A DNA stretch of 64,000 nt from Sphaerolaimus hirsutus (taxonomy: Eukaryota > Nematoda > Chromadorea > Monhysterida > Sphaerolaimidae): NCBI GenBank assembly GCA_964036195.1, contig OZ038456.1, positions 3,286,001 through 3,350,000 of the forward strand, given 5' to 3'. The notes under the pieces are model-generated. The model was not told the DNA's origin, did not search any database, and saw nothing but the letters and a program-made list of their open reading frames with translations. Position 1 is the first letter of the stretch; each line of letters opens with the position of its first letter. This document shows positions 38,879-64,000 of this stretch, piece after piece. The translations under genes and the position numbers were made by a program.

Positions 38879-38984
38879 CTGTGGAGGGGGGTAGTTCGAG
38901 GGTGAGGGGTCGAGTTGGCACAGTGGCTAGTCGACATCAAAATTCGTGCCAACCAGGGGTCTCGAATGGGGGGGGGGTTGGGGG

Positions 38985-40254: not shown

Positions 40255-42041
40255 CCCATAGGGGATTTTGGGGTTAGCATTTTGGGGGGGGGGGGTTCAC
40301 CCGCCGGCGCGTGCTAATAACTCGGGAACCGCTTGGCGAAAAATGTTGAAATTTGGATATGATATAGATAAATGTTGGGGCTACGCACAATTTTGACGAT
40401 TTTTTTCTACGACCCCCCAGACCGGAGATAGGGGGGGGCAAAAAAACACTGTCATTTGCGTTTTTTTTTTGGGTGTCATCGAGAAACTGCAAACCTGGAC
40501 ATCAATAGCTCGGTCATTTGTGAACCGATTTTAGTCATTAAAATGTTAAAATGATCACAAATGTTCGGAGAGTTCATTTCTGAGGTCAAATCGGAGATAC
40601 ACATGTGTTTATATATCGTCTTAGCCTGATTTCGAAATGCAAAATTTCCGCAAAAGTTTGCTTTTTGGACATGCTATCCTATTCTCCTGATCGAGAGAAA
40701 CTCATTAAAACAAAAATGAGATCGATATCTCTTTCCAATCAAAAGTTACAGCTACTTTTATCTGCGCGCTACACACACACTCATCACTACCACGCAGTAC
40801 GCGGTCATTTTCTTCCGCGCCATGACCTCGCTGCATAGTGCCTTTTATTTAGCACTTTTCCGCTATTTTTGAATACCGTGTTTCCTCGAATTACCCTCTG
40901 GGGGTTTATTTTTTCAGAGTGGAAATTTTGAGGGGGTTAGATGAGGGGGGGTTTATTATTTCGCCAGAAATTTTTTGAAATCCCAGTACGAAATTGTCGT
41001 TCCAAACGTACGCAGACGTCGTAAAATGCAACAAAAACCATTGAGTATAAGACTCTACGGACTTCTATAAGTATTTACGCAGTATAAACCTTGTTCTAAC
41101 GTAACACAGTAATTGTTTTCAACGTGTGTTCTGCTTGGACCACAAACCGTAGCTGTCATTTACATTTAAATGTCATTTACACCCAATTTGAGGGGGGGGG
41201 GTATTTCGAGGGGAGGTTTATAAATTCATATTGCCCATTTTGAGGGGGGTATTTCTAGGGGGTATTTCGAGAAAATACGGTAGATAAATGAAAATGAATC
41301 CACCGCTAAATCGGAGCAGAGTGTCAGCAGAAAAGTAAACATAAACGATTGTATAGACATAAGAAAAGAGCATGTATGCGAAAAATGAATGTATTAAGTG
41401 GTAATTATGGGAACAGTGTATTCAAAAATAGCGGAAAAGTGCTAAATAAAAGGCACTATGCAGCGAGGTCATGGCGCGGAAGAAAATGACCGCGTACTAC
41501 GTGGTAGTGATGAGTGTGTGTGTAGCGCGCAGATAAAAGTAGCTGTAACTTTTGATTGGAAAGAGATATCGATCTCATTTTTGTTTTAATGAGTTTCTCT
41601 CGATCAGGAGAATAGGATAGCATGTCCAAAAAGCAAACTTTTGCGGAAATTTTGCATTTCGAAATCAGGCTAAGACGATATATAAACACATGTGTATCTC
41701 CGATTTGACCTCAGAAATGAACTCTCCGAACATTTGTGATCATTTTAACATTTTAATGACTAAAATCGGTTCACAAATGACCGAGCTATTGATGTCCAGG
41801 TTTGCAGTTTCTCGACGACACCCAAAAAAAAACGCAAATGACAGTGTTTTTTTGCCCCCCCCCTATCTCCGGTCTGGGGGGTCGTAGAAAAAAATCGTCA
41901 AAATTGTGCGTAGCCCCAACATTTATCTATATCATATCCAAATTTCAACATTTTTCGCCAAGCGGTTCCCGAGTTATTAGCACGCGCCGGCGGGTGAACC
42001 CCCCCCCCCCAAAATGCTAACCCCAAAATCCCCTATGGGTC
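40255..42041. repeat. Long near-perfect inverted repeat (about 615-bp arms) with a nested TIR element
   Basis: Arms 40255-40870 and 41424-42041 are almost identical complements, beginning CCATAGGGGATTTTGGGG. A 77-codon frame appears in each arm on opposite strands with one residue changed. The loop carries a TACCGTATTT-type element (40873-41282) and 140 bases of other sequence. Low divergence between the arms points to a recent fold-back element or to gene conversion between the arms. Confidence 0.85.
40873..41282. repeat. TACCGTATTT TIR element, copy 5 (in the loop of the inverted repeat)
   Basis: Left TACCGTGTTTCCTCGAATTA, right TTTCGAGAAAATACGGTA. Interior as in the other copies. Confidence 0.75.
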
Positions 42042-42656: not shown

Positions 42657-42856
42657 NNNNNNNNNNNNNNNNNNNNNNNNNNNNNNNNNNNNNNNNNNNN
42701 NNNNNNNNNNNNNNNNNNNNNNNNNNNNNNNNNNNNNNNNNNNNNNNNNNNNNNNNNNNNNNNNNNNNNNNNNNNNNNNNNNNNNNNNNNNNNNNNNNNN
42801 NNNNNNNNNNNNNNNNNNNNNNNNNNNNNNNNNNNNNNNNNNNNNNNNNNNNNNNN
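42657..42856. other. Assembly gap (200 N)
   Basis: A run of exactly 200 N, probably a fixed-size scaffold gap of unknown true length. The 5' LTR, primer-binding site and first part of gag of the adjacent retroelement are missing here, so adjacency of the two sides is not proven. Confidence 0.95.
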
Positions 42857-44313
42857 TAGAGACAATGGAACAGAAAATGACTGAGAGTGTTGCTAAATTT
42901 GACTCGGTGCACCAAGAGATAGCGAAGAAATTAGCGCAACTGGGCGCGTTGGAAGGTAAACTTTTGGGATTGAATAGAGACCCCCCTAAATTGCCCCCAC
43001 GAAAATTTGACAAAGGATGTTGGGAATGTGGCTCTGAAGAGCACATCAGATATGAGTGCCCCAAACTAACTCCAGAACAAAGGGAACAGTATTTCAAAAG
43101 GAGCCGCGGCGGCGGAGCATCCAGAGGAAATGGACGTGGGCGCGGCGGAGGACAACGTGGTGGCTATCAGAGAAATGATCAAGCCCAAGCGATGCAGCCA
43201 GGTATGATGCCAATGCAATACGCATATCCGCAGTGGCAACCAGCTCAGCCGATGCCTGTGCAGCCGGCGCAGACGGTACAGAGGGCTGGTGATATGAACA
43301 TGCAACCGCAGATGATGGCTTATCAAACGCCGCCAGCTAATTGGATGGCTATGGGGCCGGATGGGTGCATGCAGCAATATAACATGCAACCGGTACAGGT
43401 AAGCAATCCCCACGTAGAGTCGCTGAACCCCACGCGAGTGACCAGTACGACTGGAATGACCATGCATGTGCGCGAAGATGATCGCTGCATGATGATACGT
43501 CCCGTTAATAAATTAATCCCTGTGATGCAAGGCTTGGAATTAGAGGCAGATGAACCTGACGAACTGGTTCCAGAGTCACCCGAAGAACAGCAGCGCACTA
43601 CGGGAATGCATGTGCTCGCGCAAGAGCGGGAATTCTGGATCAAACCATGGGCCTACATGCGAACCGAGAAAGGTTACTTGTTTCGAACTACCTGGCTGGC
43701 CTTTCTACGCAGGATCGGAATGCATGATTTGAGAGAAACAGACTGTACGTTGTGGCCTAATTGCCCTGCGGACGACCACTCGGACACGCTGACTGAGGTG
43801 CCCTTGGACGTGCTCATGAACATCAGTCTGGACCCGTTTCTGTACGCCACGCCGGCTGCTCTGCCGCCGCGTACTGGATCCAGCAACCAGGTAGACAGGT
43901 ATATGGGTTTTCTGTCTACTGAGGAAGGGGTGCGCCCCGCGCCGCGCGCGTACTCAGAACCCCCCTACATGCCCCAGGTCGCACAGTCACTGTTTTTTGT
44001 ATTGGCAATTGGGTTAATTATAATGGGATTAGCTTTGTTGCCGGGTGCGGGCGCGACCACCATGCCCTCGTTTCCACTGCTCTGCAGTGACTTGACGGAT
44101 CACTACGATTTATACACGTACCCCCCCCCTACCAAATTGCACGGCTATTGTGGACACTACGGCATCATTAGAACGGCCTCGAAAATTGACACTGACCATC
44201 TACAAACGAAATATGGTAGAATATCGTGCGGCAGCGCACAGGTGTGTGGCCTCTACCAGAACGGCAAGGACGTATCAGAACTTCTGGGGCGACGTCACGT
44301 TGGAAAAGTTTGA
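42857..44313 (+). CDS. Gag (5' truncated by gap) running into the glycoprotein signal region
   Basis: Open in one frame from the gap edge to the stop at 44313. Residues from the gap on form an amphipathic helix (MTESVAKFDSVHQEIAKKLA), then a CCHC zinc knuckle (C-x2-C-x4-H-x4-C, CWECGSEEHIRYEC), an RGG tract (RGGGASRGNGRGRGGGQRGG) and a Met/Gln/Pro-rich stretch. These are nucleocapsid features that bind RNA. Further on, 43987-44056 encodes SLFFVLAIGLIIMGLALLPG, a hydrophobic segment like a signal peptide or signal anchor. After it comes cysteine-containing sequence that continues in the next frame from about 44265. No proper start is visible because it is in the gap. The protein before the gap should hold the Gag capsid. 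Confidence 0.8.
43396..43404 (+). promoter_or_regulatory. Strong splice-donor-like site in gag
   Basis: ACAG|GTAAGC at 43395-43404 is close to the ideal 5' splice site. A donor here could feed a spliced subgenomic RNA for downstream ORFs (for example the 339-codon ORF or the helicase), as in retroviruses. Inference only. Confidence 0.35.
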
Positions 44314-47251
44314 TTCTAACCCCCGATCTGTGGGCGCCGCCGAGTGCGAAGGCATGATTAAATATCATAAATGCAATAATGGGCCTATGACCCCTGTGAG
44401 TGATTTGGACAACGCATGGGACACCCAATACCCCACCAATGTTAGCTACTCAGGACATGGATTGTACTGTTGCAAATGGGTAAGTGAAACGACGCCACAC
44501 TGTGGGCTGTTTCGAGGGGAAGTACGAATGAGATATGGAGCTAACACCATGCAAAGCACGCTGGGTGAGGTTAGCAAGTGCAATTATGAAATGGGTGCAT
44601 GCACACTAGAAGACGGCAGCCAATTAACATGGAAACCGAACCCGAAGGCGGAATGCCCTTATGAAAAATGGCGCGAAATGCATGGACGCATTAGACAGGA
44701 TATCTGGCTAGCCGATGATCACACACTATCACTGTCTTTCAGAGCACATGAAGAGGTTGAATCATGCGGCATCAAACTATGGAAATCGGATCAGGATATA
44801 GTAGTGGCCCCATTTGAAAAGGCAGTGATTCGAAGCGTCAGACAAAAACGAGCGCAAGGGCGACCCACGCTGGGAATAGTGAGCGCAGGCCAATTAGCAG
44901 CCAGCATGCAGGCGGTATACGAAACAGCAGAACAAACCATGCGTGCACAGGCCGTAGCCACCTGCAAGAATGTGCAACACTTCCAAGAATTTGTGCGCCT
45001 GGCTATGAGTGAACACGCCACTACGACAGCCCGCTGGTACATGAATGATAATGAAATAATTGCCAAACCCGCGCCGGACGGATTTTTGGTTCACAAATGC
45101 TTCGCGGTAAAAACATACGAGATCATGAAAGAGGAAAAGTCTCCAGAATGTTATGAAACAGTACCTGTGCAAGTTAGTGTGCACGGGCAAAATGTGACGT
45201 TGCACATGAATAGGTTGACAAACATTCTGCACTTTCAAGCGATCCCGGGATCATGCACCAATGCTCACAATCGTGTGGTAATGTTAAATGGACAGTGGTA
45301 CAAATATCTACCGGAAGTAGGTGGCCTGGAACATTTACCTATGTATAACACACACAGTTTCCCGCAGAAATGGCAACAGGAAAAGGTTAAGGATGTGCAT
45401 CATCAGATTTTTGCCGCCACGACCATGTACAACTTGTCAGAACTATTGCCGACAACCACCCTAAATGACGTGTGGCATGCATATTCAATCGTGCGGCAAA
45501 TTACGCAGGGGGCGGAACCGAAGGTGGAATCACACATGCAAAGGCATCGAACCTTGGCAAAATCGGTATTGGCGCTGGGATGGTGGGATTTTGACACCTG
45601 GCGCACCTGGCTACAAGTATGGATTTATCTGATATGTGCACTGGTCACCATGCAGTATTTACTAGCCGCACTCATGGCCGCAGCGCCGGAAACGGCCGTG
45701 ACTCTGGTGAACAGGGCAAAGGAAAAAATCAAAAGGCGACCAAAGACAGAAGAAAAGTCCAATATTATTGTCGAACTGGCCGAGGACCGCCCTAGCGAAC
45801 AGGTAAAGGTAAGAACGGTAATTAACCCGTGCGTGGGAATGCCAAGTGGCATGCCCGCACTCACGGGCGCGCGTCGTTTTCCCGCTATACAATACAGTAT
45901 CAACAGAAAATGCGATCTGGAAGAAGAATCAGTATGCATGATCACTTTCTCGACGGAAGAAAGAGATAACATACATCAAGTAGCCAACCGACGTGAAGAA
46001 ATCATGCATGTGTACTACAGCCCATCCATTACCATAACCATCGATGGGAGAGAATATCGAAGATGTCTACTGGACACAGGCGCCATGCGTTCATTATGCA
46101 ACAGAGACGTGCTGATGCGGCACAAGGAAAAGGCTACTAAGCATGATGAAGTTTCACCTATTGGAGCCCTCAGGTGTGCAGCAGATTCGAAACTTTTGGT
46201 ATTGGGACAGATGGAAATACCGGTAACCATGGGAAACCACACCTTCGGGATTGTGTTTCAGGCAGTGAACGGATTAGCAGGTGAAATCCTAATTGGCGCA
46301 GACGTCCTGCGGCACATGGTGGTAGACCTACCTGCAAGGGAACTACGAATCCCTACGGCTAACGCGATAATTCCGTTTGACAACCCCGACCCGGAAGTGC
46401 AGCAGCGCAGAATTTACGCTATTGTAAACGAAAAAATAGAAATTCTGGCTAGACATGAAGCGCTAGTGACGGCGAAATTATCTGCCCCCATGGATGAAAA
46501 GTTATTTACGGTCATGGGATTGGATACGGTAGGCGAACGCTGTGGAGTTATGGCCGCTTCAGCGGCGTATGAAACCAGTGCCCCCGTATTTCAGGTGAGA
46601 TGTGCAAATGTGCGAAACCAGCCCGTAGTGCTACAGGTAGGACAGCGCATTGCAGTGGTCGAACCAGTGGACTGCGTGCTGAAGGTGAAACCTGGAGACC
46701 CCCCCGCTGAATGGGTGAAGCAGTGCTATGACAGAGATGTGTGTCGACAGGTTCAAGCGACTGAACCCCCCCCCAAAGTAGCCGAAGACAAATTAGGACC
46801 CCCACTGCAAGTTGCATGTCCAGATGGACACGTGATGGAATTCACCGTGCCAGAAACATTGACGGACGAACGCAGAGAGGAACTGAAAAAGGTAATTTTG
46901 CAGTACAAAGAAGCTTTTGCCCGACATAAGTACGACATCGGCTACAGCGAATTAGTGGACTACCGGTTGCAATTAGTGGATAAAAAACCAATTGCATGCA
47001 GAATGTACCGGTTGAGTCTGGATGATCAGCAATACTTAGAAAATCATTTGAGATGCCTCATCGAGCACGACATCGTGGAACCCAGTACGAGCCCGTATTG
47101 TGCCCCCACGTTGGTGGTATCCAAACCGGATGGATCGAAGCGGATGGTAATTGATTACAGACGCCTGAACGCTGTTTTGCACGCTCCCCAATTCCCATTA
47201 CCCCGCTTAGATGAAACAGTCGAATCTTTATGTAGCTGCAAGTATTTTTAG
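44265..47251 (+). CDS. Glycoprotein-like region fused in frame to aspartic protease and N-terminal RT
   Basis: The frame is open from 44150, but homologous content starts near 44265, where the gag frame's cysteine-rich sequence is taken over one frame later. The first about 450 codons are cysteine-rich, with N-glycosylation sequons (NVS, NVT, NLS), a furin-type site RQKR (44840-44851) followed by a small hydrophobic stretch, and WLQVWIYLICALVTMQYLLA (45605-45680), a transmembrane anchor. This is the layout of a cleaved viral envelope glycoprotein; I cannot assign the family. A basic linker leads to protease, with LLDTGA (DTGA 46073-46084) and EILIGADVL, typical of retropepsins. RT begins about 46920 (VVSKPDGSKRMVIDYRRLNA) and the frame stops at 47251 in the middle of the RT palm. 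No stop separates glycoprotein from protease. Confidence 0.8.
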
Positions 47252-48488
47252 CAGTGCTGACATAAATCAAGCTTTCTATAACATTGCTTTGCATCCAGAT
47301 GATCGACACATCACGTCATTCAGAAATGTTTTTGGACAATTTCAACTGAAACGTTTACCAATGGGATTAAAATGCTCACCCAGTTTAGCGCAGCGCTGTT
47401 TTGAATTAGCTATGGCCGGCTTAATACATCGAAATGTGTTATTATACATCGACGATTTACTGATTTATAGTGCAACCTGGGAAACACATTTATATGACAT
47501 AGGGCAGGTATTGGAAAGATTAATTAGGAATAATTTCAAAATTAGCCCAAAAAAGTGTTTCTTCGCACGCGTCACAGCTGTACGTTTTCTAGGATTTATG
47601 ATTGGCCGTGACGGCGTGTGCGTTCCAGATGACAAACGCCACATAATACAGGACTGGCCGGTACCCACTACCGTAAAGGAAGTTAAGGGTTTTCTGGGAG
47701 CCATAGGGTTTTTTAGACGCATGATTCACAGGTGCGCAGAGTTAGCTGTACCTTTGTCAAATCTCACGCGCACGGGACCAAGAGAAAATTACAATAGCGA
47801 CACCCCAGTGGATTTGACAACAAAACCCAAAGCACTGGAAGCTTTCCATAAGCTCAAGGAAGCATTGTTAGGAAGCCCCTGTTTGCAATTTCCCGACCCT
47901 AAACGCATGTTTATAATTATCACGGACGCCTCTAAAATCGCCGTTGCGGGCGTACTGGCACAACGAGCAGAGGACGAGAAAATACTACATGCATGTGCCT
48001 TTTACAGCCGGAAGTTAGGTGCCACCCAAAGCAAATGGCCAGCGATTTCCCTGGAAGCGTGTGCAATCTACGAAAGCATACGTAATTGGCATTGTTATCT
48101 GGCGGGACGGCCCTTTGAAGTCTGGACTGACGCCAAGAGTATTTCGTGGGTAAAGAATCCTAATTTAGAGACTACCCCGCACGCCATGCTGCACAAGTTC
48201 GCTTTAGCAATTACGCCGTACCAAATCACGTTTAAGCATTTGCGGGGAAAAAGCAACGAATTAGCAGATGCATTATCCAGAAGACAAGACGCACCAGTGG
48301 TATTCGACGAGAAAAAGGACCTGGATGAGGCTTTTGAGCAGTTCGCACAAGTTACGTGCCGTGAAATCGCTATCCCGCATGATAAGCAGGTTACGGTAGC
48401 TGCGGCGAGCAGGGCAGCGTACCAGCCAATCAGCGTAACCGAGGAGGCGGAGTTACTGCGACCAATCAGCGACCGGACGCGCGGGTGA
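47211..48488 (+). CDS. RT (rest of palm/thumb) and RNase H
   Basis: The RT continues here one frame later than the preceding ORF. The changeover is at a run of five T (47245-47249), one base too many for the RT to stay in frame, so this is a decay or sequencing indel rather than a programmed shift. Motifs: SSADINQAFYNIAL (motif A with the catalytic Asp), LPMGLKCSPSLAQ, LLYIDDLLIYS (YIDD 47445-47456), FLGFMIG. RNase H follows with ITDAS, SLEACAIYESI, WTDAKS and LADALSR, the Ty3/gypsy pattern. It ends at a TGA (48486-48488), but the same frame continues into integrase, so the TGA splits one polyprotein. Confidence 0.9.
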   Translation: MKQSNLYVAASIFSSADINQAFYNIALHPDDRHITSFRNVFGQFQLKRLPMGLKCSPSLAQRCFELAMAGLIHRNVLLYIDDLLIYSATWETHLYDIGQVLERLIRNNFKISPKKCFFARVTAVRFLGFMIGRDGVCVPDDKRHIIQDWPVPTTVKEVKGFLGAIGFFRRMIHRCAELAVPLSNLTRTGPRENYNSDTPVDLTTKPKALEAFHKLKEALLGSPCLQFPDPKRMFIIITDASKIAVAGVLAQRAEDEKILHACAFYSRKLGATQSKWPAISLEACAIYESIRNWHCYLAGRPFEVWTDAKSISWVKNPNLETTPHAMLHKFALAITPYQITFKHLRGKSNELADALSRRQDAPVVFDEKKDLDEAFEQFAQVTCREIAIPHDKQVTVAAASRAAYQPISVTEEAELLRPISDRTRG

Positions 48489-49712
48489 AAAGAGGCAGAG
48501 TCACCCGGGCTGCGAGAGCGGCAGCGGAATGCGGAAGCGCCTGGAACTGGAACAATGGCTGGTGGTTCAGGAGCCGGAAGTGGAGTTGTTTCGGGTTTAA
48601 CGGGTGCAACTAAGCGCAGTACAATCATGGCACTACCTCCCATGACCCCGGTTGATAAGTTGAAACGGTTACAAGCAGAAGAACCGTACATAGCCGCAAC
48701 TATAGAAGTGTGTCGCGCAGATAATTTTTACAGCGCCGCGCCGTATTTTATTGATCAATACGGTTTATTACGCCGACAAGCGGGAACGTCCCAGATACCA
48801 GGTGTACAATTATACGACCCAGTGTGTATTCCATCGGAATTAGTTCCATTCGTGTTAGAATTAGCTCACAATCACCCCACGGCGGGCCATTTAGGAATAA
48901 TAAAAACATTTGAAAGATTACAGGAATTCGCGTGGTTTCCAGGAATGCGGCCAGAAAGTGCGCGCTGGGTTGCCACCTGCCCTTCGTGCAACGCCAAGAA
49001 AGGTCTCAGAGCGGCAATGCGAACTCAAATGGTGTGCCGCCAGGTAGCCAAAAGGCCAGGTGATGTGATAGCAGTAGACGCAATAGGACCTTTACTAACC
49101 ACGAAACGCAGAAACCGACATGTGTTAGTATTTGTTGATCAGTGTACACGTTTTGGAATTGCCGTGCCCGTCCCCGACATAAAACAAGACACAGTATCAT
49201 TTGCATTTTTGCTGCACATTTTGCCTATATTTAGTGTGCCGGCCATTATACTCAGTGATAACGCCCCTAGCTTTACCGAGGGCACTTTTGCCAAGCTTTT
49301 ACAATATTTGAACGCGACTCAACATACATCATTTGCGTACACCCCCAAGAGCAACGGAATGGTGGAACGTAGGAATGGTGTTCTGATGGAAATAGTATCT
49401 CACTACGTAAATCGTACACATGACGATTGGGACATACATTTAGGCGCCGCTGTACATGCGTACAATACGTCAAAACACCCTTCCTTGCAAACCACCCCCT
49501 ATGCGTTGCTATTTGGCAAGCCTGCTGCGTCTATGTGGGAGCGTATGATCGAGCCTCCCCCCGACACTGAGGCATTGCCCTCATTGCCGCATAAGCGCGC
49601 TCTTATAAATGAATTAGGCGCGCGTCTGACCACAGCACGCGAAGCAGCGCACACCGCTTTAGCAAAGGCGCAGCAAAAGGAGCAATTTTACGCCAATCGC
49701 CGTGCGCGCTGA
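48489..49712 (+). CDS. Integrase, N-terminal and catalytic domains
   Basis: Same frame as RT-RNase H, after the in-frame TGA. The first ATG is at 48555, but the frame is open from 48489. HHCC zinc-binding domain: HNHPTAGH...CPSCNAKKG (about 48865-49000). Catalytic core: AVDAIGP (first Asp), ILSDNAPSF (second Asp), NGMVERRNG (Glu), with 35 residues between the second Asp and Glu, the classic D,D-35-E spacing. A second in-frame TGA at 49710-49712 ends this piece before the C-terminal domain. Confidence 0.9.
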   Translation, partial: KEAESPGLRERQRNAEAPGTGTMAGGSGAGSGVVSGLTGATKRSTIMALPPMTPVDKLKRLQAEEPYIAATIEVCRADNFYSAAPYFIDQYGLLRRQAGTSQIPGVQLYDPVCIPSELVPFVLELAHNHPTAGHLGIIKTFERLQEFAWFPGMRPESARWVATCPSCNAKKGLRAAMRTQMVCRQVAKRPGDVIAVDAIGPLLTTKRRNRHVLVFVDQCTRFGIAVPVPDIKQDTVSFAFLLHILPIFSVPAIILSDNAPSFTEGTFAKLLQYLNATQHTSFAYTPKSNGMVERRNGVLMEIVSHYVNRTHDDWDIHLGAAVHAYNTSKHPSLQTTPYALLFGKPAASMWERMIEPPPDTEALPSLPHKRALINELGARLTTAREAAHTALAKAQQKEQFYANRRAR

Positions 49713-49958
49713 TTGAATGTGCAACGCGGGCAAGCGGTACGCGTATACACGCCGCGTATTACTCAGTTGACAGGCCCCAGTAAGAAATTCGCGCCTCGCT
49801 TTATCGGCCCGTATGAGTGCATTGATTATGCCCACCCATTAGTGACTTTATTCAACAATATTAATAAGAAAATTTATGTAGTTCATGCAGATCGTTGCAA
49901 GGCAACCAGTGAATATTTAATTCCCCCTTCTTACAGTGAATTATACGGCGACGACTAA
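49713..49958 (+). CDS. Integrase C-terminal domain
   Basis: Continues the integrase frame after the TGA at 49710. Contains GQAVRVYTPR, KKFAPRFIGPYECIDYAHPL and a YVVHADR end, the KF-PR--GPY block and following strand of Ty3/gypsy integrase C-terminal domains. Ends at TAA near 49956. This is the normal end of pol. Confidence 0.85.
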   Translation: MNVQRGQAVRVYTPRITQLTGPSKKFAPRFIGPYECIDYAHPLVTLFNNINKKIYVVHADRCKATSEYLIPPSYSELYGDD

Positions 49959-50184
49959 AATTGATTAATTAGCTGATTAATTAGCCGTTACGACCATCGC
50001 CGTCGCGTCAAACAACACGGAACCAGGTATAACAGGTATGAAGTGTGTGTGAAAGTGTGCGTGTGTTTTTAGGAAGCTCGTGCACCCCTTTTGCCCACGG
50101 GCAACTGGACCGCACGAGTTCTTATTACTTTCCCCGTTCATAAAACTTTGTAATTAATTATTTTATCACATTGTTATAATTATA
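49959..50184 (+). other. Spacer between pol and the downstream ORFs
   Basis: 226 bases of AT-rich sequence with TTAATTAG repeats (GATTAATTAGCTGATTAATTAG), GTGTGTGTGAAAGTGTGCGTGTGT, and CAGGTATAACAGGTATG near 50022. I see no ORF. CACATTGTTATAATTATAATG directly precedes the next start. It may hold a splice acceptor (TTTTTAG at 50068-50074) or internal promoter for the downstream genes. Confidence 0.4.
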
Positions 50185-51204
50185 ATGGCTTCGGCCTCTC
50201 GCAAACGCCCATTTGAAGGTGCAGACGCCCCGCCCATTAAATCCAAGGAGACAAATACACATGGTGCCTGCGGCGGCGGAACCATCCCCCCGCGACAACT
50301 TTACCGCGCGCAGCAGATGCAAAATGGACCGGAAATCTACCCCAGCAGAGGGAAATTCGAAGGTTGGGTAGATAGGGTGTATATTGACTCGGGCGCCGAC
50401 GGGCATGTTGAGTATCAGTGCCATGTGAGAATTTCTGAGCAGACGATGGCGATACTCAGCGAAAACGAGCAGTGGGTGAATGCGGATGAAGCCTATCCGT
50501 ATTTTTATTATTCGAATAAGCGGGCCAAGGCGGCTAGGGACAAACGGACCACCCAGCTGGTGGATTTGTGCGCGAGAATTCAGAAACAACACCCCTCGAT
50601 GTTTCTGCCCCTGGTGCGCCACGGGATGCGTTTCTCGGCGACCGCAATCGCACAAAAAATAGAAAATCCCAGGTACTGGGAGTTTACCGGCGTCGCGATA
50701 TGGGGTAATCAGACAAAGTGCCCCTTAAACGTTGCCGCCCCCGTGGTCGTGAGTACGCAGGGCACGCGGCGCGTCACTCAAGCGGCACGTACATTGACGC
50801 GCGGCGACACTTCCGGCTACCAGCCCTACACGAGCGACTGGAAAACGGCGCGGCTGCGAGCGGCCTTCACGCCGTCGAATTACAAAAATCTGGAACCGCT
50901 GGGCGCAGCGGAGCGGGGCGATGCCGGGCCGGAAAAGTTGGTCATTTTGCACAGAGAATACGTGAGTGACAGCAGAGTGGAAAATTTGAGTGCTGGGCAG
51001 TTGGGGCTGGCCCACGTCGAATATCACGACCTGAACGATTTGGACGTGTTCGGCGACGAATTCTACGGCCATGCGTACGGGCTGCAGGTCGCCACAGCCG
51101 AGGACATCAGCACAACGGGCATCCAGCCGGACACAGAGAACCGAGACAATATGGACGCATTTCTCAGGTATAAATTGGGTATTTTAGCAGCGGCCCACTG
51201 CTAA
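50185..51204 (+). CDS. Accessory ORF of the retroelement, 339 codons, function unknown
   Basis: Intact ATG-to-TAA frame directly after pol. Residues 1-25 are basic and disordered (MASASRKRPFEGADAPPIKS), with a likely nuclear signal, and a second basic patch NKRAKAARDKR lies near residue 115. The middle (from about residue 55) has mixed strand/helix character (GWVDRVYIDSGADGHVEYQC); 'DSGA' there resembles a protease motif but lacks the surrounding retropepsin pattern. No membrane segment. I recognise no family. It lies next to the helicase, overlapping that frame by about 30 bases in the -1 frame, so the two are probably expressed together. Confidence 0.75.
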   Translation: MASASRKRPFEGADAPPIKSKETNTHGACGGGTIPPRQLYRAQQMQNGPEIYPSRGKFEGWVDRVYIDSGADGHVEYQCHVRISEQTMAILSENEQWVNADEAYPYFYYSNKRAKAARDKRTTQLVDLCARIQKQHPSMFLPLVRHGMRFSATAIAQKIENPRYWEFTGVAIWGNQTKCPLNVAAPVVVSTQGTRRVTQAARTLTRGDTSGYQPYTSDWKTARLRAAFTPSNYKNLEPLGAAERGDAGPEKLVILHREYVSDSRVENLSAGQLGLAHVEYHDLNDLDVFGDEFYGHAYGLQVATAEDISTTGIQPDTENRDNMDAFLRYKLGILAAAHC

Positions 51205-54155
51205 ACGAGTCATTTTTGCGGTTTCGGGCGAAACGCGCAACGGATGTGTGCGCACATGTGTCCTGGGAGCACACGCCGCAGGGCACTGCATGCGATATTA
51301 TGGTGCGCCGCCCGGACCCAGAAGAATTACAAGCTGACACTTTCGAAGGACCAGAAGAGCAGCGCGTGCGTTTGCTGGAGCGGGTGAACACGCAGACACA
51401 ACTGTTGAACCAGGCGACGCCCATGTCAGTGCTGAGCTTGGTGCTGGCCAGACCGGACGAAGACAAACCAGCGGCGGGCAGCCCCAATTTATCAGTCAGA
51501 ATTACCAGCATGGAATCAGAGCCAACCACTACAATGTTGCGTGCGAAGTTGGACATGGCGGCGTCGCAATCAGCACTGCCCCGAACCCTGGAGAGTGGAA
51601 GATACATGGTGCGCGGCTCGAACGACTCGCCCAATTACGACCGAACCATGCGGTCGCTGCAAGCCGCCCTGAACAAAGCGCCGGTCGGCTGGGTGCCAAA
51701 AGTGGTTCAGGGGTCAAAAGTACTCACCCTGGAGGCGCAAATCCAATTAGCTGTGATATTGAATTTGCATCTGCTGGATGACGAAACTGACTGGGCGCTA
51801 ATTAGCCGCGAGGCTAATGAGTTGTACGAATCATTGTTCAGGGGAAAAAATGAACAAATGATTCAGGCCAAATTAGGTGAGTTTTTGCCACAACAAGGAC
51901 AGGTAGAAGTTTTAGGAGCTGTGATCACAGCCGTGCGAATGCGCAAACCCCTTTTGATTATGTGTGACTCGCCTTTCGGGTCCGGGAAGACGACCACACA
52001 AAATCAACTGGCGTATGTGTGTTCACGCGGCTATAATTATTATAACTCGAGACCCAGGGTGCGCGCGGGCTCCGACTTGCCATCGGACAAGCAGCCGAAC
52101 GCCAAATACCATTCGACGCTCATCACGTGCACGGTCAACTCGGCGGCTGACGAAGGCGCGCGCAGGGCCCTGACCAATCTGAATAAATTAGGGCAGCGGG
52201 ATATTTTTGGGGCTTTGGAAGTTTTGTTGCGGGAGCGCGCGAAATGGACCGCTATGGCTGATACGCCATTTTCTGAAATGCAAAAACTGGAGGGTTTTGA
52301 AGAATTGTTGAAATTAAGAGCGGCATTTCCGGTGCGCGTTTTGAGCCCCATGTGGGAAACTGACCCCACTTATAATACCACCCCCGCGACCCAATTGCCA
52401 ACCCTGCACACCCTAGCACAGCGAACCGGCCACAACATCGTCCGCCTCAGCCCCGAATGGACGGCAGCGCTGGAAAAGTACGACGGCGCCAAGAAGGACT
52501 ACGAGCTGGTGGACGAAATTATCAACAACTGCACGGACGACGCCGTCATACGCGCACAGCTGACCGAACAAGTGCCATTTCTCACCGCCGAAGACGGAGA
52601 CGAGCAGCCATTCGATGACTTCGAGGCAGGCGTGGCGGGCGCCCGGGCTGGTGAGGCTAGTTTAGCTGACCAGGGATTTTGGGGTAAGGTGCTGCGTAGG
52701 GCGCTGTCTAAATATGTCAGGGCTACGGTCAGGCTGCACCGGGTGTTCTTGGAAGTGGTGCAGCCCGGTCAAATCCATGTCACTTTAGACTCCGCCCACG
52801 ACGCCCGTATAAAAAGTGTGACTGCGTGTGCGGTAATTATTGACGAAGCGTCTTTGGCGTCTGACGCTGCCGTAATTAGCGTGGTTCAGGCGGCTCAGCT
52901 CCCAGTGAACGGCATGCTACTTCTATTTGGAGACAGTAAACAACTGACGCGTATGATTCGCGTGCAAGACTGGGTGGAGCCTGTCCTGAAACCCGACCCC
53001 ACCCTCATTGATAGGCTCACACAATATCAACTATGTCCCGTGGTTCACTTGGAAACAGTGTTCCGCGGGCATCGCCAGCTCATTCAGGCTAACTCTGTGG
53101 CGGCGTACAACGGACTGCTACGCGCCTACAACGACACTGCAGCGCACGGCGCCACCATGTTGCCTGCACCTGGCGACTTCGAGGATGGCGTCATGCTGTC
53201 ATCGACGCTGGTGCACCAGGGCTGCGAATCAAAAGAGGGCATGTCCATTATCAACAAGAAGGAGCTGCGCATCATCCTGCACCTGTACGACTACCTCGTG
53301 GCCACAGTGAAAGAAGATCCCACCCTGCCCTGGGCAGATCTTACCGATCCCGCTAGTTTGCTAATTGTCTGTTTTTATGCGGCGCAGGCGCGCGCCCTAA
53401 TCAGTCGACTAGTAGCCCATACAGAACACGACGCGGCTTACTGGGCCACCCGCGTGATCACTGCCGACAAAGCACAGGCCCGTGAAGCGGAAGTGGTCAT
53501 CGTTTCCTGCGTGCGCGGCAGCCCACCTACCGACTCCGCCCAGCTGGATGCCGACCCCAAGAAGGCGTATGGTAGAGTTGGATTTGTAGCGGAGTTGCCC
53601 CGAGGAAACGTAGCCACCTCCCGCGCCAAATGTGTGCGCATCGTGGTGGCCAACGCCGAGACCATGTTGTGGTCAACCTTTTTCCACCGGTTTCTGACGG
53701 TCGAGCACAAAGCCGACCGGATTTACTCTTACGAGTCAGGCCAAATTTGGGGAAACGTGTTGGGATTTTGGCCTCCGGAATGGCGCCCGCGGGCCGACTT
53801 GAAAGAACTAGTCGGACCGGACAGATACCCGGCCCTCGAAGAAGAACTGCAGGCGGAATGTTTGTCTGACATTGAAACCGCCACCGCGGGCTCTGACTCC
53901 TCTGCAGACGCGCGGGAGGAGGGTGTGCCGGTGTTGGAGGAAGTGGTGCCCGTTGTCGAACCAGTTTACCGCCCTAATGAAGAATATTCCCCCATTAGCA
54001 ACGACATGGCGGCCATGGCACTGCAGAACGTAGCCGAGCCCCCCTCGCCGCCGCCCGAGCACCACGACGCGGTCAAGGCCATCCCACTGCCACCGGAGGA
54101 GGCTCCAGCGCAACAGGTAGAACACCACATGGAAAATGGTAATTGTGAAAATTGA
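51174..54155 (+). CDS. SF1 (Upf1-like) helicase ORF carried by the retroelement
   Basis: Frame open from 51174 to TGA 54153-54155, about 990 codons; first ATG in frame is 51300. Helicase motifs in order: Walker A PFGSGKTT (51975-51995), Walker B IIDEAS (52836-52853), motif III LLFGDSKQL (about 52920-52946), motif V region AREAEVVIVSCVRG (about 53480-53515) and motif VI GNVATSRAK (53604-53630). This is the arrangement of superfamily 1 helicases of the Upf1/DNA2-NAM7 group, which unwind RNA or DNA 5' to 3' using ATP. The N-terminal 250 residues show no known domain. The last 130 residues are acidic and Pro-rich, probably disordered. LTR retroelements normally encode no helicase, so this is an acquired gene. 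A second copy of its C-terminus is at 64000-63791. Confidence 0.88.
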   Translation: MGYFSSGPLLNESFLRFRAKRATDVCAHVSWEHTPQGTACDIMVRRPDPEELQADTFEGPEEQRVRLLERVNTQTQLLNQATPMSVLSLVLARPDEDKPAAGSPNLSVRITSMESEPTTTMLRAKLDMAASQSALPRTLESGRYMVRGSNDSPNYDRTMRSLQAALNKAPVGWVPKVVQGSKVLTLEAQIQLAVILNLHLLDDETDWALISREANELYESLFRGKNEQMIQAKLGEFLPQQGQVEVLGAVITAVRMRKPLLIMCDSPFGSGKTTTQNQLAYVCSRGYNYYNSRPRVRAGSDLPSDKQPNAKYHSTLITCTVNSAADEGARRALTNLNKLGQRDIFGALEVLLRERAKWTAMADTPFSEMQKLEGFEELLKLRAAFPVRVLSPMWETDPTYNTTPATQLPTLHTLAQRTGHNIVRLSPEWTAALEKYDGAKKDYELVDEIINNCTDDAVIRAQLTEQVPFLTAEDGDEQPFDDFEAGVAGARAGEASLADQGFWGKVLRRALSKYVRATVRLHRVFLEVVQPGQIHVTLDSAHDARIKSVTACAVIIDEASLASDAAVISVVQAAQLPVNGMLLLFGDSKQLTRMIRVQDWVEPVLKPDPTLIDRLTQYQLCPVVHLETVFRGHRQLIQANSVAAYNGLLRAYNDTAAHGATMLPAPGDFEDGVMLSSTLVHQGCESKEGMSIINKKELRIILHLYDYLVATVKEDPTLPWADLTDPASLLIVCFYAAQARALISRLVAHTEHDAAYWATRVITADKAQAREAEVVIVSCVRGSPPTDSAQLDADPKKAYGRVGFVAELPRGNVATSRAKCVRIVVANAETMLWSTFFHRFLTVEHKADRIYSYESGQIWGNVLGFWPPEWRPRADLKELVGPDRYPALEEELQAECLSDIETATAGSDSSADAREEGVPVLEEVVPVVEPVYRPNEEYSPISNDMAAMALQNVAEPPSPPPEHHDAVKAIPLPPEEAPAQQVEHHMENGNCEN

Positions 54156-54280
54156 TACGAAACAATTTTTGTCAAAAAAACAGTTATCAAAGTTTCAATG
54201 TAATAATTCATGCACAACTTTTTGTCATCAGGAGAAACAGACAACTTTGTAACAAAAACCAGTAATTAAAAACATACTTG

Positions 54281-54410
54281 TTAATATTCCATGAAAACAA
54301 TTAGAAAATCTTGTCGACGATCAGTTTTCACACGCACAGTCTGCGACGTGTCGGTCGAGCAGGTAACTTGAATGTTGATTCCAAACTGCCCGTCCAGCAG
54401 TGGCACGATG
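54281..54410 (-). CDS. Antisense accessory gene, exon 2 (copy 1)
   Basis: Minus-strand exon after acceptor TTTCACAG; it completes a split codon and runs 42 codons to TAA at 54283-54281. Encodes IVPLLDGQFGINIQVTCSTD and then SQTVRVKTDRRQDFLIVFME, a strand-rich sequence of no family known to me. The copy 2 exon has exactly the same length (130 nt). Confidence 0.5.
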
Positions 54411-54477
54411 CTGTGAAACAGCACAGATTAATAATCCGATTAATCAGTTTCCAACAAAAGAAAAAACTTTTTCTCAC
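54411..54477 (-). other. Predicted short intron of the antisense gene (copy 1)
   Basis: 67 bases, GTGAGA donor and TTTCACAG acceptor, with TATTAAT as a possible branch site. The copy 2 intron (63462-63532) is 71 bases with ACTACTAAT. They differ at about 7 positions plus a gap, more than the flanking exons. Confidence 0.45.
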
Positions 54478-54635
54478 ATCGAGCCCTGAGCGGGAACCAA
54501 AATTTCGAACTTTCGAGCACAAAAAGCCGGCACGGCGGAAAGCTGATGCCATAATTCGAATGAAGACGAGCCATATTTGCACCCCCAGGGCATGTGACTG
54601 CCACAGCCGTCCACCGAAAAATGCAGAGAAGGCAT
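54478..54635 (-). CDS. Antisense accessory gene, exon 1 (copy 1)
   Basis: ATG at 54635-54633, 52 codons + 2 to the donor at 54477. Encodes MPSLHFSVDGCGSHMPWGCK and then ELWHQLSAVPAFCARKFEIL and VPAQGS. Joined to exon 2 the protein would be 95 residues. Between the two copies exon 1 has 3 differences, all at third positions (2 silent, 1 Lys/Asn). Three cysteines; no signal peptide. Function unknown. Confidence 0.5.
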
Positions 54636-55560
54636 GATTTTTGAATAACCAAAAAACAGCGCAAAACACTTTTTCTGAACATGTCGTTTTTAGCCCGGAG
54701 GTAAAAAATTAATGGCTGGTGGGATTGTAGGTAGAAATATGGCTAACTAATCATGCGTAAAAACGTAATGACAACTTTGCGCAGACACTCCGACGACTCG
54801 AGAACGACCATGTGCGACCGAATGACGACCCGCGGTGCACAGGGAAGTCACAGTGAACGTGCGGTTCGCTGTGCACTGCAAATCCGCCAACGAAGCCGCA
54901 GCCCCAGGACGGTATGCCCGAATGGACACTACTGCGGCCATGAATTTATTAATTGTTTCTTGTCCGTTAATTATTTAGTTGCTTCCCGTGTGATGCTAAT
55001 TTTTCTTTTTATTTCATGCTTCATTAATTAAGCTAATTAAGTTACCCGCATTTTTGAGTTAATTAAGTGAATACTTCCGTTTTCTTTTGCATTTCCCAAT
55101 ATGTACTCTCGAACGTTATAATTATTAGGCTTTTATCAAGTTTACATTTTTGGTTAAAAGGGTGCAGTGTCTGGGAATGATTAGAAAGGCTTTTTATGTT
55201 TCTAGTTAAGCTAACAGGTGTTGACTCTGTTAAATGCTTAGACGCCCCGATAGATAACATTCAGAAAATTCCCCGACCAAGTGCATTTTTATTTGGGACT
55301 AGGTAATGGGTGGAAAAGTGGCAAACGGCAATTATTGTCGGCACGCAACTGCAAGGCACATGCAGAGCACAGTTTACAGTGAAGAGCACAGCAGTGCCAA
55401 TTAATTATTCCCATCACCCAGGGTGATTGGTGAACTCACAAGTGCTAGTGTCTTGTGGCGTGTGTTCAGGCCCGAAGTTTCCAACCCTTACCTGGCAATG
55501 CAATAACCTTGAACAACCCCCGCAAATGAGCGTTCTTTCTGTGGCCTTGGTCGGGCGTGC

Positions 55561-55570
55561 TATAAAAATA
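55561..55570 (+). promoter_or_regulatory. LTR TATA box
   Basis: GCTATAAAAATATTTTTCAC, conserved in the second copy (complement at about 62363-62374). Transcription would start about 30 bases downstream, near GGCGCAGGTTGATAACACG, defining the U3/R border. Confidence 0.6.
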
Positions 55571-56011
55571 TTTTTCACCTAAAGGGGCGCAGGTTGATAA
55601 CACGTGTCACACCACCTGCTCTCTACTGTACCGTAACCTCTGAATAGAAACCCAGTTCCCGACACTCACCTACGAGATAAATTGTGTTTTAATTACGTCA
55701 ATGGTAATTACAGTTACTTTACGCTCGGTTTAATTCATAATTGTACCCGTTTTATTTAATTAGATATTTTTTCCCGCATTTAATTAATTTACTTGTGCCT
55801 TGTACGCTATGTTTACGGTTTTCCAGTGATCATTGAATTTGCCTTATTGATTCGCTTATTATGGTTAATTGTTGTGTCTTTGATTTAGTATTCATTTCGT
55901 TTATGGTAGATTTTGGTGATTATAAAACGCGCTGATTTTACATTTTTTTACCCACTAGAGGCTATACGACTCACTTGAGCTATTGTGAAATTGACTCTGA
56001 CTATATTGCTA

Positions 56012-56017
56012 AATAAA
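56012..56017 (+). promoter_or_regulatory. LTR polyadenylation signal
   Basis: AATAAA in TTGCTAAATAAAGTTCCCG. The second copy keeps AATAAAGTTTCCC (complement near 61912-61924). It lies about 420 bases after the putative start, so R would be about 400 bases long. Confidence 0.55.
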
Positions 56018-56404
56018 GTTCCCGTGAAACCAACTTGGTCCCCCTGAAGCATACTAACTGCTTAAATTTTAATTTGAATTTTATTAATTTCGGCTTTACT
56101 TTAATTTCGGCTTTTTAACAACTAATCGAAGTAAACCGCCAGCAGCAGTTACGAAAGGGATTGGTAAGTTGCCGTGTCCGTCCTCAGGAACTGTCAGGAC
56201 CCCAAGGGGTACTGGCGCCGTTCCTGATTTGCGTGTAAAATCCCCGTACCATAAAAACAATTATTTATTTAATTACGCACGCAATTAGAAGCGCAAAGGG
56301 ACCGGAATTTACAATTCTCTGCCGCGGCAAAATTCGACGAGTGGCGTATTTTTGTGGTAAAAACGGAAACTAGTAAAATTAGTAAAAACGTAAAATATCT
56401 GACA

Positions 56405-58182: not shown

Positions 58183-58626
58183 TACCGTATTTCCTCGAAA
58201 TACCCCCCGGGGGGTGATTGTTTCATAGTGGTCCCGAGAGGGGGGGGGGTTAAACGAGGGGGGGGGGGTATTTCGAGGGGGGGGGGGTTATTGTTTCCCA
58301 AGAAAATTTTTGAAAACCAAGTACGAAATTGTCGTCTGAAACGTACGCAGACGTCGAAAAATGCAACAAAAACCGCCATTTATAAGGTTCTGTAGACTAA
58401 TATTAGTATGTACCTAGATGGTATGTACACTGTTCTAACGTGACACCGACATTGTTTTAACGTGTGTTCTGCAGTACACAGAACACAAACTACAGTTATT
58501 GTCATGTACGTTCCCTTTACACTCAATTTGGGGGGGGGTATTTCGAGGGGGGGGTGATTGTTTCATAGTGGTCTCGAGAGGGGGGGGGGGTCAAACGAGG
58601 GGGGGGGTATTTCGAGGAAATACGGT
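58183..58626. repeat. TACCGTATTT TIR element, copy 6
   Basis: Ends TACCGTATTTCCTCGAAATA and complement, long G runs near both ends. Closest to copy 1 (same GGTGATTGTTTCATAGTGG block at both ends). Confidence 0.8.
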
Positions 58627-58911
58627 ATTTACATGCCAGAGGATAGATGAAGAGGGTGCAACGATGTTGTCGTCGAACAGGATTGTTGTCGAGAATGGAA
58701 AATAAACATGAATACACAAATGCAGATAAGTATAAAAGTACAAAAATGCAGATAAGTATAAAAATGAACATCTTTTTCTCTCCATATGATACTCTTATGC
58801 ATGAAACAGTCTTTACATATGTTGTCCATTATCTTTGTTAGGACCAAAAGTATCTGTGATCCACTTCATCCAGCCAACAAGAAATTAGCCACGTGTGTCC
58901 AAGCCAGGGTT

Positions 58912-61525: not shown

Positions 61526-62763
61526 TGTCAGATATTTTACGTTTTTACTAATTTTACTACCTTCCGTTTTTACCACAAAAATACGCCACTCGTCGAGTTT
61601 TGCCGCGGCGGAGAATTGCAAATTCCGGTCCCTTTGCGCTTCCACTTGCGTGCTTAATTAAATAAATAATTGGTTTTTATGGTACGGGGATGTTCACACG
61701 CAAATCAGGAACGGCGCCAGTACCCCTTGGGGTCCTGACAGTTCCTGAGGACGGACACGGCAACTTACCACTCCCTTTCGTAACTGCTGCCAGCGGTTTT
61801 ACTTCGATTAATTGTTAAAAGCCGTAATTAATGCAAAGCCGAAATTAATAAAATTCAAATTAAAATCCAAGCAGTTAGTATGCTTCAGGGGGACCAAGTT
61901 GGGTTCACGGGAAACTTTATTTTAGCGATGTAGTCAGAGTCAATTTCACAATAGCTCAAGTGAGTCGTATAGCCTCTAGTGGGTGAAAAAATGTAAAATC
62001 AGCGAGTTTTATAATCACCAAAAACCTACCATAATCAAAATGAATACTAAATCAGAGACACAACAATTAACCGTAATAAGCGAATTAATAAGGCAAATTC
62101 AATGATCACTGGAAAACCGTAAACACAGCGTACGAGGCACAAGTAAATTAATTCAATGCGGGAAAAATAATTAATTTAAACGAACGGGTGCAAATGTAAT
62201 TTAAATCAAGCGTAAAGTAACTGTGATTATCACTGACGTAATTAAAATGCAATTCATCTCAAAGGTGAGTGTCATTAGCTGGGTTCTATTCAGAGGTTAC
62301 GGTGCAACTCAGAGCAGGTGGTGTGACACGTGTTATCAACCTGCGCCCCTTTAGGTGAAAAATATTTTTATAGCGCGCCCGACCAAGGCCACAGAAAGAA
62401 CGCTCATTTGCGGGGTTTGTTCAAGGTTATTGCATTGCCGGGTAAGGGTTGGAACTTTGGGACTAAACACACGCCACAAAACACTAGCACTTGTGAGTTC
62501 ACCAATCACCCTGGGTGATGGGAATAATTAATTGGCACTACTGTGCTCTTCACTATAAACTGTGCTCTGCATGTGTCTTGCAGTCGCATGCCGACAATAA
62601 TTGCCGTTTGCCACTTTTCCACCCATTACCTAGTCCTAAGTAAAAAGCACTTGGTCAGGGAATTTTCTGAATGTTATCTATCGGGGCGTCTAAGCATTTA
62701 ACAGAGTCAACACCTGTTAGCTTAACCAGAAACATTAAAGTCTTTCTAACCCATTCCCAGACA
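61526..62763 (-). repeat. 3' LTR of the second copy (about 1238 bp)
   Basis: Ends (read on minus) TGTC at 62763 and GACA at 61526, giving nearly the same length as the first LTR (1237). TATA and AATAAA sites are conserved. The left boundary is inferred as for copy 1. Confidence 0.6.
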
Positions 62764-63303: not shown

Positions 63304-63461
63304 ATGCCTTCTCTGCATTTTTCGGTGGACGGCTGTGGCAGTCACATGCCCTGGGGGTGCAAATATGGCTCGTCTTCATTTGAATTATGGCATCAGCTTT
63401 CTGCCGTGCCGGCTTTTTGTGCTCGAAACTTCGAAATTTTGGTTCCCGCTCAGGGCTCGAT
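63304..63461 (+). CDS. Antisense accessory gene, exon 1 (copy 2)
   Basis: ATG 63304-63306, 158 nt, exactly as long as in copy 1. Ends at donor GTGAGA. Antisense to the element's own direction, hence plus strand here. One predicted residue differs from copy 1 in this exon. Confidence 0.5.
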
Positions 63462-63790: not shown

Positions 63791-64000
63791 TCAATTTTCA
63801 CAATTACCATTTTCCATGTGGTGTTCTACCTGTTGCGCTGGAGCTTCCTCCGGTGGCAGTGGGATGGCCTCGACCGCGTCGTGGTGCTCGGGCGGCGGCG
63901 AGGGGGGCTCGGCTACGTTCTGCAGTGCCATGGCCGCCATGTCGTTGCTAATGGGGGAATATTCTTCATTAGGGCGGTAAACTGGTTCGACAACGGGCAC
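63791..64000 (-). CDS. Helicase C-terminus of the second copy (partial)
   Basis: 69 codons to the stop at 63793-63791, matching the acidic Pro-rich tail of the first helicase with one or two residue changes (for example Lys to Glu in the HHDAV block). The helicase core is outside the window. The open frame shows the tail is translated sequence in both copies. Confidence 0.85.
   Translation of the reverse strand: MPVVEPVYRPNEEYSPISNDMAAMALQNVAEPPSPPPEHHDAVEAIPLPPEEAPAQQVEHHMENGNCEN

What the first reader, a model, noticed from the sequence alone, without database searches (positions are those of the whole stretch)
50185..54155. LTR retroelement carrying an SF1 (Upf1-like) helicase and a partner ORF of unknown function
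All main SF1 motifs are readable (GSGKTT, DEAS, GDSKQL, NVATSRAK). The helicase lies between integrase and LTR, and its tail is repeated in the same position in the second copy, so it belongs to the element and is not a neighbouring host gene. Helicases are usual in Helitrons and RNA viruses but not in LTR elements. Captured extra ORFs are known in some bdelloid rotifer LTR elements, but I know of no helicase of this kind. Possible roles: escape from nonsense-mediated decay, RNA unwinding during reverse transcription, or antiviral counter-defence.
Basis: partly seen in the sequence, partly recalled or inferred. Interest (0 to 1): 0.88.

Follow-up and report, generated by a model that had tools for sequence, protein, structure and literature searches.

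The report
Retrovirus-like element with a UPF1-like helicase
An animal genome seems to carry a retrovirus-like jumping element that has added a complete RNA-helicase gene of the UPF1 kind and a second unknown gene between its integrase and its end repeat, an unusual addition that may help its RNA survive in the host cell.

Summary
Between an integrase (48489-49958) and a probable 3' LTR (55168-56404) lie two open ORFs: ORFX (50185-51204, no relative found) and a 993-codon frame (51174-54155) with the motifs of a UPF1-like SF1 helicase (Pfam AAA_12, E 5e-25). The last 69 codons, the downstream kilobase and the LTR recur, inverted, at 64000-61526, and the homology stops at the same LTR-like terminus (TGTC...GACA) in both copies. 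Pol is Ty3-like but broken in this copy. An env-like glycoprotein lies between gag and RT, an order described as a first for planarian Burro elements. Open points: no 5' LTR (a 200-N gap cuts gag), one full helicase copy, no host name, no relative of helicase or ORFX found, and a genome-wide search that did not complete (13 tries). I read it as a Ty3-type provirus-like element with a two-gene 3' accessory cassette acting on its own RNA. The placement is well supported; the role is inferred. New variant of a known kind.

The parts
42657..42856 (.). run of 200 N (assembly gap) inside the gag frame; 5' LTR and gag start not visible
   Evidence: no direct repeat of the 3' LTR upstream
42857..44313 (+). 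rest of gag frame with a CCHC zinc knuckle (weak, 17.4 bits against a cut-off of 20.8), then the start of the env-like glycoprotein (signal-peptide-like stretch, read by eye)
44096..47251 (+). env-like glycoprotein (Monjiviricetes_fusion PF24664, residues 150-408), then a retroviral-type aspartic protease (weak), then the first part of the reverse transcriptase
   Evidence: Pfam E 2.8e-7, 29.3 bits against cut-off 27; protease profiles below cut-off; Ty3 RT chains E 2.6e-8 and 1.2e-7 at residues 970-1046
47211..48488 (+). rest of reverse transcriptase and RNase H, in another frame than the part before it, closed by an in-frame stop
   Evidence: RVT_1 4e-23, RT_RNaseH_2 1e-28
48489..49958 (+). 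integrase: H2C2 zinc domain and rve core, an in-frame stop at 49710-49712, then its C-terminal part in the same frame to 49958
50069..50072 (+). acceptor-like site TTTTTAG (AG at 50071-50072), chosen by eye from 14 pattern matches; no ATG between it and 50185
   Evidence: inferred
50185..51204 (+). ORFX, 339 aa partner ORF of unknown function
   Evidence: codon frequencies r 0.72 with the helicase in this frame against at most 0.29 in the other five
51174..54155 (+). UPF1-like SF1 helicase frame (first ATG 51300); overlaps the end of ORFX in the -1 frame
51978..51995 (+). helicase motif I (Walker A)
52842..52853 (+). helicase motif II (Walker B)
53607..53630 (+). helicase motif VI
54281..54635 (-). 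antisense two-exon ORF of 95 aa (exons 54635-54478 and 54410-54281, the latter end computed from the length) with splice sites kept in both copies; membership in the element uncertain
   Evidence: dN 0.018, dS 0.099 between copies; P about 0.04 by simulation; no Pfam match, no PDB match
55156..55167 (+). purine-rich stretch next to the LTR, polypurine-tract-like
55168..56404 (+). probable 3' LTR, 1237 bp, TGTC...GACA; TATA-like box 55559, AATAAA 56012, donor-like GT 56164
63794..64000 (-). second copy: last 69 codons of the helicase
61526..62763 (-). second copy: 3' LTR, same termini

Best explanation
The region is the 3' third of a Ty3-type, env-bearing (provirus-like) LTR element with the order gag - env - protease - RT/RNase H - integrase - ORFX - UPF1-like helicase - LTR. 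Shown: order, frames, helicase family, probable 3' LTR, a second copy of the 3' end. Inferred: ORFX and helicase are made from a spliced subgenomic RNA (donor-like site in U5, acceptor-like site ahead of ORFX). The helicase, an ATP-driven RNA translocase by analogy with UPF1 and Sen1, then acts on the element's own RNA. The most likely gain, in my view, is protection against host RNA-based restriction: small-RNA silencing, or decay and restriction through host helicases of the UPF1 or MOV10 kind. About 0.75 for 'gene of the element'; about 0.3 for this role. The figure below is for the placement together with an RNA-level accessory role of some kind.
For: The helicase lies between integrase domains and a TGTC...GACA LTR. 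Both copies end at the same LTR base and then differ. Uninterrupted 993- and 348-codon frames are not expected by chance. Helicase codon usage resembles ORFX and gag (RSCU r 0.58 each) and env (0.47), less so RT and IN (0.15, 0.19). The only GGTAAG/GGTGAG site in the LTR is the same U5 site in both copies. RT matches Ty3 chains. Helicase profiles: IGHMBP2 family 3e-14, Sen1 3e-6, UPF1 0.01. Retroelement SF1 helicases with weak silencing-suppressor activity in a plant test system are reported (PMC6338049, passages), and MOV10 restricts LINE1, Alu and SVA (PMC3475670, start of abstract in listing).
Against: No 5' LTR, primer-binding site or target-site duplication seen; gap in gag. Only one full helicase copy. 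GC3 of ORFX and helicase (0.66, 0.64) is higher than that of RT and IN (0.47, 0.45). The tail comparison (2 differences in 204 bases, one of them an amino-acid change) cannot show selection. Open frames beside a broken pol could be luck (4 lesions in 6.9 kb predict 2.3 in the cassette, P of none 0.10), or the pol lesions could be assembly errors. No relative of helicase or ORFX was found. The authors of PMC6338049 hold that helicase domains seem to have no essential function in retrotransposition (passage). Nothing was measured on expression or activity.
Confidence: 0.58

Rival explanations
1. A host UPF1-like gene (or processed copy) that came to lie beside an old Ty3 insertion, the two then copied together by an inverted duplication.
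For: Only two loci are visible and they face each other 5.1 kb apart. Codon composition differs from RT and IN. Pol is broken while the helicase is open.
Against: The shared stretch ends at an LTR-like terminus in both copies, and the flanks differ. The helicase runs uninterrupted for 993 codons and is paired with ORFX of like codon usage.
Confidence: 0.17
2. ORFX plus helicase are a separate mobile element or an endogenised piece of another virus nested between integrase and LTR, not a working part of the retroelement.
For: Two genes of similar codon bias side by side; the helicase frame overlaps ORFX in the -1 frame, a virus-like layout.
Against: No convincing terminal repeats around the cassette (only short matches of 15-21 bases in 49600-55300). 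No viral relative in IMG/VR by close-relative scans, which reach close relatives only. The junction from helicase tail to LTR is the same in both copies.
Confidence: 0.12
3. Same placement, other role: the helicase opens RNA structure for reverse transcription or packaging of a genome of at least 13.5 kb.
For: The visible part from gap to LTR end is already 13.5 kb. Better cDNA synthesis is one idea discussed for LINE helicases (PMC6338049, passages).
Against: The helicase frame is not fused to gag or pol and would need its own route into particles.
Confidence: 0.22
4. Same placement, other role: a UPF1 decoy that shields the long multi-stop RNA from nonsense-mediated decay.
For: UPF1 is among the nearest solved relatives (E 0.01); long sequence follows the pol stops.
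Against: No UPF1-type Cys/His domain: six Cys/His in the first 265 residues. Sen1 chains and the IGHMBP2 profile score better.
Confidence: 0.15

Closest known systems
SF1 helicases of RNA-virus type in TRAS and Jockey LINEs, and fused to Ty1/copia domains in Aedes aegypti and Leptopilina boulardi (PMC5563155: abstract and passages)
   Same: SF1 RNA helicase captured by a retroelement, proposed counter-silencing role
   Different: Those are fused in frame to retroelement proteins and are of the plus-RNA-virus type; here a free-standing ORF of the AAA_12/UPF1 type (Viral_helicase1 only E 0.045, below cut-off) in a Ty3-type env-bearing element
Burro giant Gypsy elements of planarians (PMC6431247: section 7 and passages)
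   Same: env homology between gag and protease; extra host-like domains in a Gypsy-type element
   Different: Burro has one huge polyprotein with BIR, ankyrin, BCL2 and, in one species, midasin-like AAA ATPase homology; no helicase is named there for Burro (the 3 occurrences of the word concern Helitrons, Polintons and Teratorn). Here the extra genes are separate 3' ORFs
Bdelloid rotifer Vesta, Juno and TelKA LTR elements with captured ORF3 (PMC5408684: passages)
   Same: enzyme or env-like ORFs captured downstream of pol
   Different: captured enzymes are GDSL esterase and DEDDy exonuclease
Cer1 of C. elegans with CERV (PMC10309623: passages)
   Same: LTR element (Ty3 type, recalled) with an accessory protein from a spliced mRNA that handles its genomic RNA
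   Different: the passages describe CERV as a protein without obvious relatives outside nematodes, not as a helicase (the word does not occur in the paper's main text)
Chuvirus glycoprotein capture by a mosquito Pao element (PMC10084718: passages)
   Same: Chuvirus-type glycoprotein in an LTR element
   Different: Pao lineage; that paper sees Gypsy fragments near such glycoproteins but no clear Gypsy capture

Membership tests
Ty3/Gypsy LTR elements (Metaviridae) | domain order PR - RT - RNase H - IN | tested here: met
   (protease matches weak, below cut-off; RT, RNase H and IN above)
Ty3/Gypsy LTR elements (Metaviridae) | RT closest to Ty3 | tested here: inconclusive
   the two best PDB matches of the N-terminal RT part are a Ty3 RT chain (4ol8, identity as Ty3 recalled) and the Ty3-G Gag-Pol polyprotein (7q5b); no RT tree was built
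Ty3/Gypsy LTR elements (Metaviridae) | LTRs at both ends, primer-binding site, target-site duplication | tested here: inconclusive
   3' LTR probable in two copies; 5' end lost at an assembly gap
UPF1-like SF1B helicases | helicase domain profiles and SF1 motifs I, II, III, VI | tested here: met
   AAA_12 88.5 bits against 27, motifs; AAA_11 below cut-off
UPF1-like SF1B helicases | groups with UPF1/Sen1/IGHMBP2 in a tree | not tested
   ranking only: TIGR00376 3e-14, below its curated cut-off; Sen1-type chains 3e-6, UPF1 0.01
UPF1 itself | N-terminal Cys/His-rich domain | tested here: not met
   six Cys/His in residues 1-265
RNA-virus type SF1H of insect retroelements | Viral_helicase1 profile | tested here: not met
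   E 0.045, 14 bits against cut-off 21
Burro elements | env between gag and protease/RT | tested here: met
   PF24664 at residues 150-408, weak protease 642-745, of the same frame; RT at 970-1046
Burro elements | giant polyprotein with BIR, ankyrin or BCL2 domains | tested here: not met
   none in the six ORFs scanned; the part lost in the gap is not testable

The most novel reading that the evidence does not exclude
A lineage of retrovirus-like Ty3-type elements carries a UPF1-like RNA helicase and a partner protein as standard accessory genes, taken from or modelled on the host RNA-surveillance machinery and turned against it. It also has env between gag and pol and a spliced antisense gene before the 3' LTR, which makes it as gene-rich as complex retroviruses.
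Probability: 0.33. Interest if true: 0.82.

Novelty: new variant of a known kind. Interest (0 to 1): 0.6.

Why it matters
LTR elements are known to pick up extra genes, but a free-standing UPF1-like helicase did not turn up in the paper searches made here (open-access PMC only, listings seen). UPF1-like helicases sit in pathways that destroy or silence foreign RNA, and the related MOV10 restricts retroelements. An element that brings its own would give a direct handle on how retroelements counter RNA surveillance, and would show how far an invertebrate LTR element can go toward the gene content of complex retroviruses.

Tried and rejected
Single-sequence AlphaFold2 of the helicase frame (mean pLDDT 34.6) and ORFX (29.2) gave no usable model, so no fold search was run. 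Protein search of 5.8 billion sequences: helicase residues 170-870, 0 hits among the 7992 candidates scored; ORFX 0 of 6246; RT/RNase H 12 of the 7998 scored, at 25-40% identity, so the library looks thin in close relatives of this element and the empty results say little. IMG/VR scans with helicase, RT, ORF2 and ORFX: none. PHROGs: one family of unknown function for the helicase (1.3e-5), none for ORFX. Rfam: 0 matches at gathering threshold in the window. ARAGORN: 0 tRNAs. Nested-insertion test: only short repeats around the cassette. Open helicase beside broken pol as evidence of selection: rejected as too weak (P 0.10). A canonical -1 slippery site in the ORFX/helicase overlap: looked for by eye, none seen; a very short intron there was considered and left open. 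Pfam on 8 other stretches of the window gave one match above cut-off, W2. An earlier reading by eye that the integrase end changes frame was wrong: one search shows an in-frame stop with the same frame going on. A first rating of the acceptor position was also corrected (AG at 50071-50072).
Full report
What is there. The plus strand from the N gap at 42657-42856 to about 56404 reads as one retroelement. After the gap come the end of a gag frame with a weak CCHC knuckle (17.4 bits, cut-off 20.8), an env-like glycoprotein (PF24664 Monjiviricetes_fusion, E 2.8e-7, 29.3 bits against 27), weak protease matches, RT, RNase H and integrase. The RT part of the second frame matches a Ty3 RT chain and the Ty3 Gag-Pol polyprotein (E 2.6e-8 and 1.2e-7). 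The glycoprotein lies ahead of protease and RT, not after integrase.

The finding itself. ORFX (50185-51204) and the helicase frame (51174-54155, first ATG 51300) follow, overlapping by about 30 bases in the -1 relation. The helicase carries motifs at residues 269, 557, 586 and 812 (their numbering as I, II, III and VI is recalled). AAA_12 matches strongly (5e-25), AAA_11 below its cut-off. NCBIfam's IGHMBP2 family matches at 3e-14, below its curated cut-off. In the PDB the best matches are three chains named 5'-3' RNA helicase-like protein (3e-6 to 1.5e-5; I take them for Sen1, recalled), then UPF1 (0.01) and NAM7 (0.17), 9 distinct sequences in all at E up to 10. Viral_helicase1 reaches only E 0.045. 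So it is a UPF1-like SF1 helicase and not the RNA-virus type. UPF1's Cys/His domain is absent (six Cys/His in residues 1-265). Neither frame length is expected by chance: in 1000 resamplings 348 codons were reached 5 times and 993 never. ORFX's codon frequencies agree with the helicase in its own frame (r 0.72) and not in the other five (at most 0.29). ORFX has no Pfam match up to E 10, no PHROG match and one PDB match at E 1.4.

Does it belong to the element? The second copy (64000 down to 61526, minus strand) repeats the last 69 helicase codons (98.6% amino-acid identity), the kilobase after it and the LTR (93% over 2484 columns; 153 substitutions and 33 gap columns). In both copies the homology stops after the same ...TCTGACA, 1237-1238 bp after a TGTC that follows a purine-rich stretch, and the flanks then differ. 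The LTR has a TATA-like box (55559), AATAAA (56012) and one donor-like GGTAAGT (56164; the same site is the only one in copy 2). This is what two insertions of one element look like. It is not proof: the 5' LTR and any target-site duplication are beyond the gap or the window. Helicase codon usage agrees with ORFX and gag (0.58 each) and env (0.47) and less with RT and IN (0.15, 0.19). That fits long residence of some genes and later exchange of others, or capture.

State of this copy. The glycoprotein and the RT each change frame, and in-frame stops lie between RNase H and integrase (48486-48488) and within the integrase C-terminal part (49710-49712; the same frame goes on to 49958). Some of these could be assembly errors or, for the glycoprotein, something programmed; not tested. 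ORFX and helicase are open. With 4 lesions in 6.9 kb, none in 4 kb has P 0.10, so this alone is no evidence of selection. The compared helicase tail has 2 differences in 204 bases, one changing an amino acid.

How it may work. 226 bases without a long frame separate the pol stop (49958) from the ORFX start (50185), so ORFX and helicase need their own message or re-initiation. A donor-like site in U5 and an acceptor-like TTTTTAG ending at 50072, with no ATG before 50185, suggest a spliced subgenomic RNA, as for env in retroviruses (recalled) and CERV in Cer1 (PMC10309623, passages). The acceptor was picked by eye from 14 pattern matches. A UPF1-like enzyme is expected to move along RNA and strip or unwind it (established for UPF1 and Sen1; recalled). 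I judge a role against host RNA-based restriction most likely (about 0.3), then help in reverse transcription or packaging (0.22), then a decay shield (0.15). These are inferences; no activity was measured.

Known and not known. Viral-type SF1 helicases occur in TRAS and Jockey LINEs and fused to Ty1/copia domains in Aedes and Leptopilina (PMC5563155, abstract and passages; PMC6338049, passages). Bdelloid LTR elements have captured esterase and exonuclease ORFs (PMC5408684, passages). Burro elements place env between gag and pol, called the first such case there (PMC6431247, section 7). The nine paper searches that were answered listed no paper that I could recognise as reporting an LTR element with a free-standing UPF1-like helicase; they cover open-access PMC only, and I saw listings and parts of six papers, not every paper. 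Hence new variant of a known kind.

Limits. The host is unknown; an eIF5-like W2 domain on the minus strand says eukaryote, and an animal is my inference from the element type. The own-genome search was sent 13 times and never answered. No homolog of helicase or ORFX was found, in libraries that gave only distant RT relatives. Structure predictions failed.

Noticed in passing
44096-47251 (+), with its start in 42857-44313: Env-like glycoprotein of the Monjiviricetes type lies between gag and protease/RT in a Ty3-type element, an order that, as far as I read, is published for planarian Burro elements only.
   Followed up: partly
54635-54478 and 54410-54281 (-): Antisense two-exon ORF (95 aa, 67-nt intron) between helicase stop and 3' LTR; splice sites and frame kept in the second copy (63304-63461 and from 63533), dN 0.018 and dS 0.099, P about 0.04 without correction for the frames looked at. 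Could be an antisense accessory gene of the element.
   Followed up: partly
54666-54905: Only 2 substitutions in 240 bases between the two copies, against about 6% over the whole shared stretch; reason unknown.
   Followed up: partly
40255-40895 and 41400-42039: 98% inverted repeat with about 500 bases between the arms, upstream of the assembly gap; part of the spacer is repeated at 58272-58635 (73%) and elsewhere in the window.
   Followed up: no
33326-33793 and 38643-38936 (-): Host gene resembling translation factor eIF5: W2 domain (E 1e-9) and, by eye, its N-terminal part; useful for naming the host.
   Followed up: no
15638-15949 (-): Chromodomain-like stretch read by eye, host gene or another element.
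   Followed up: no
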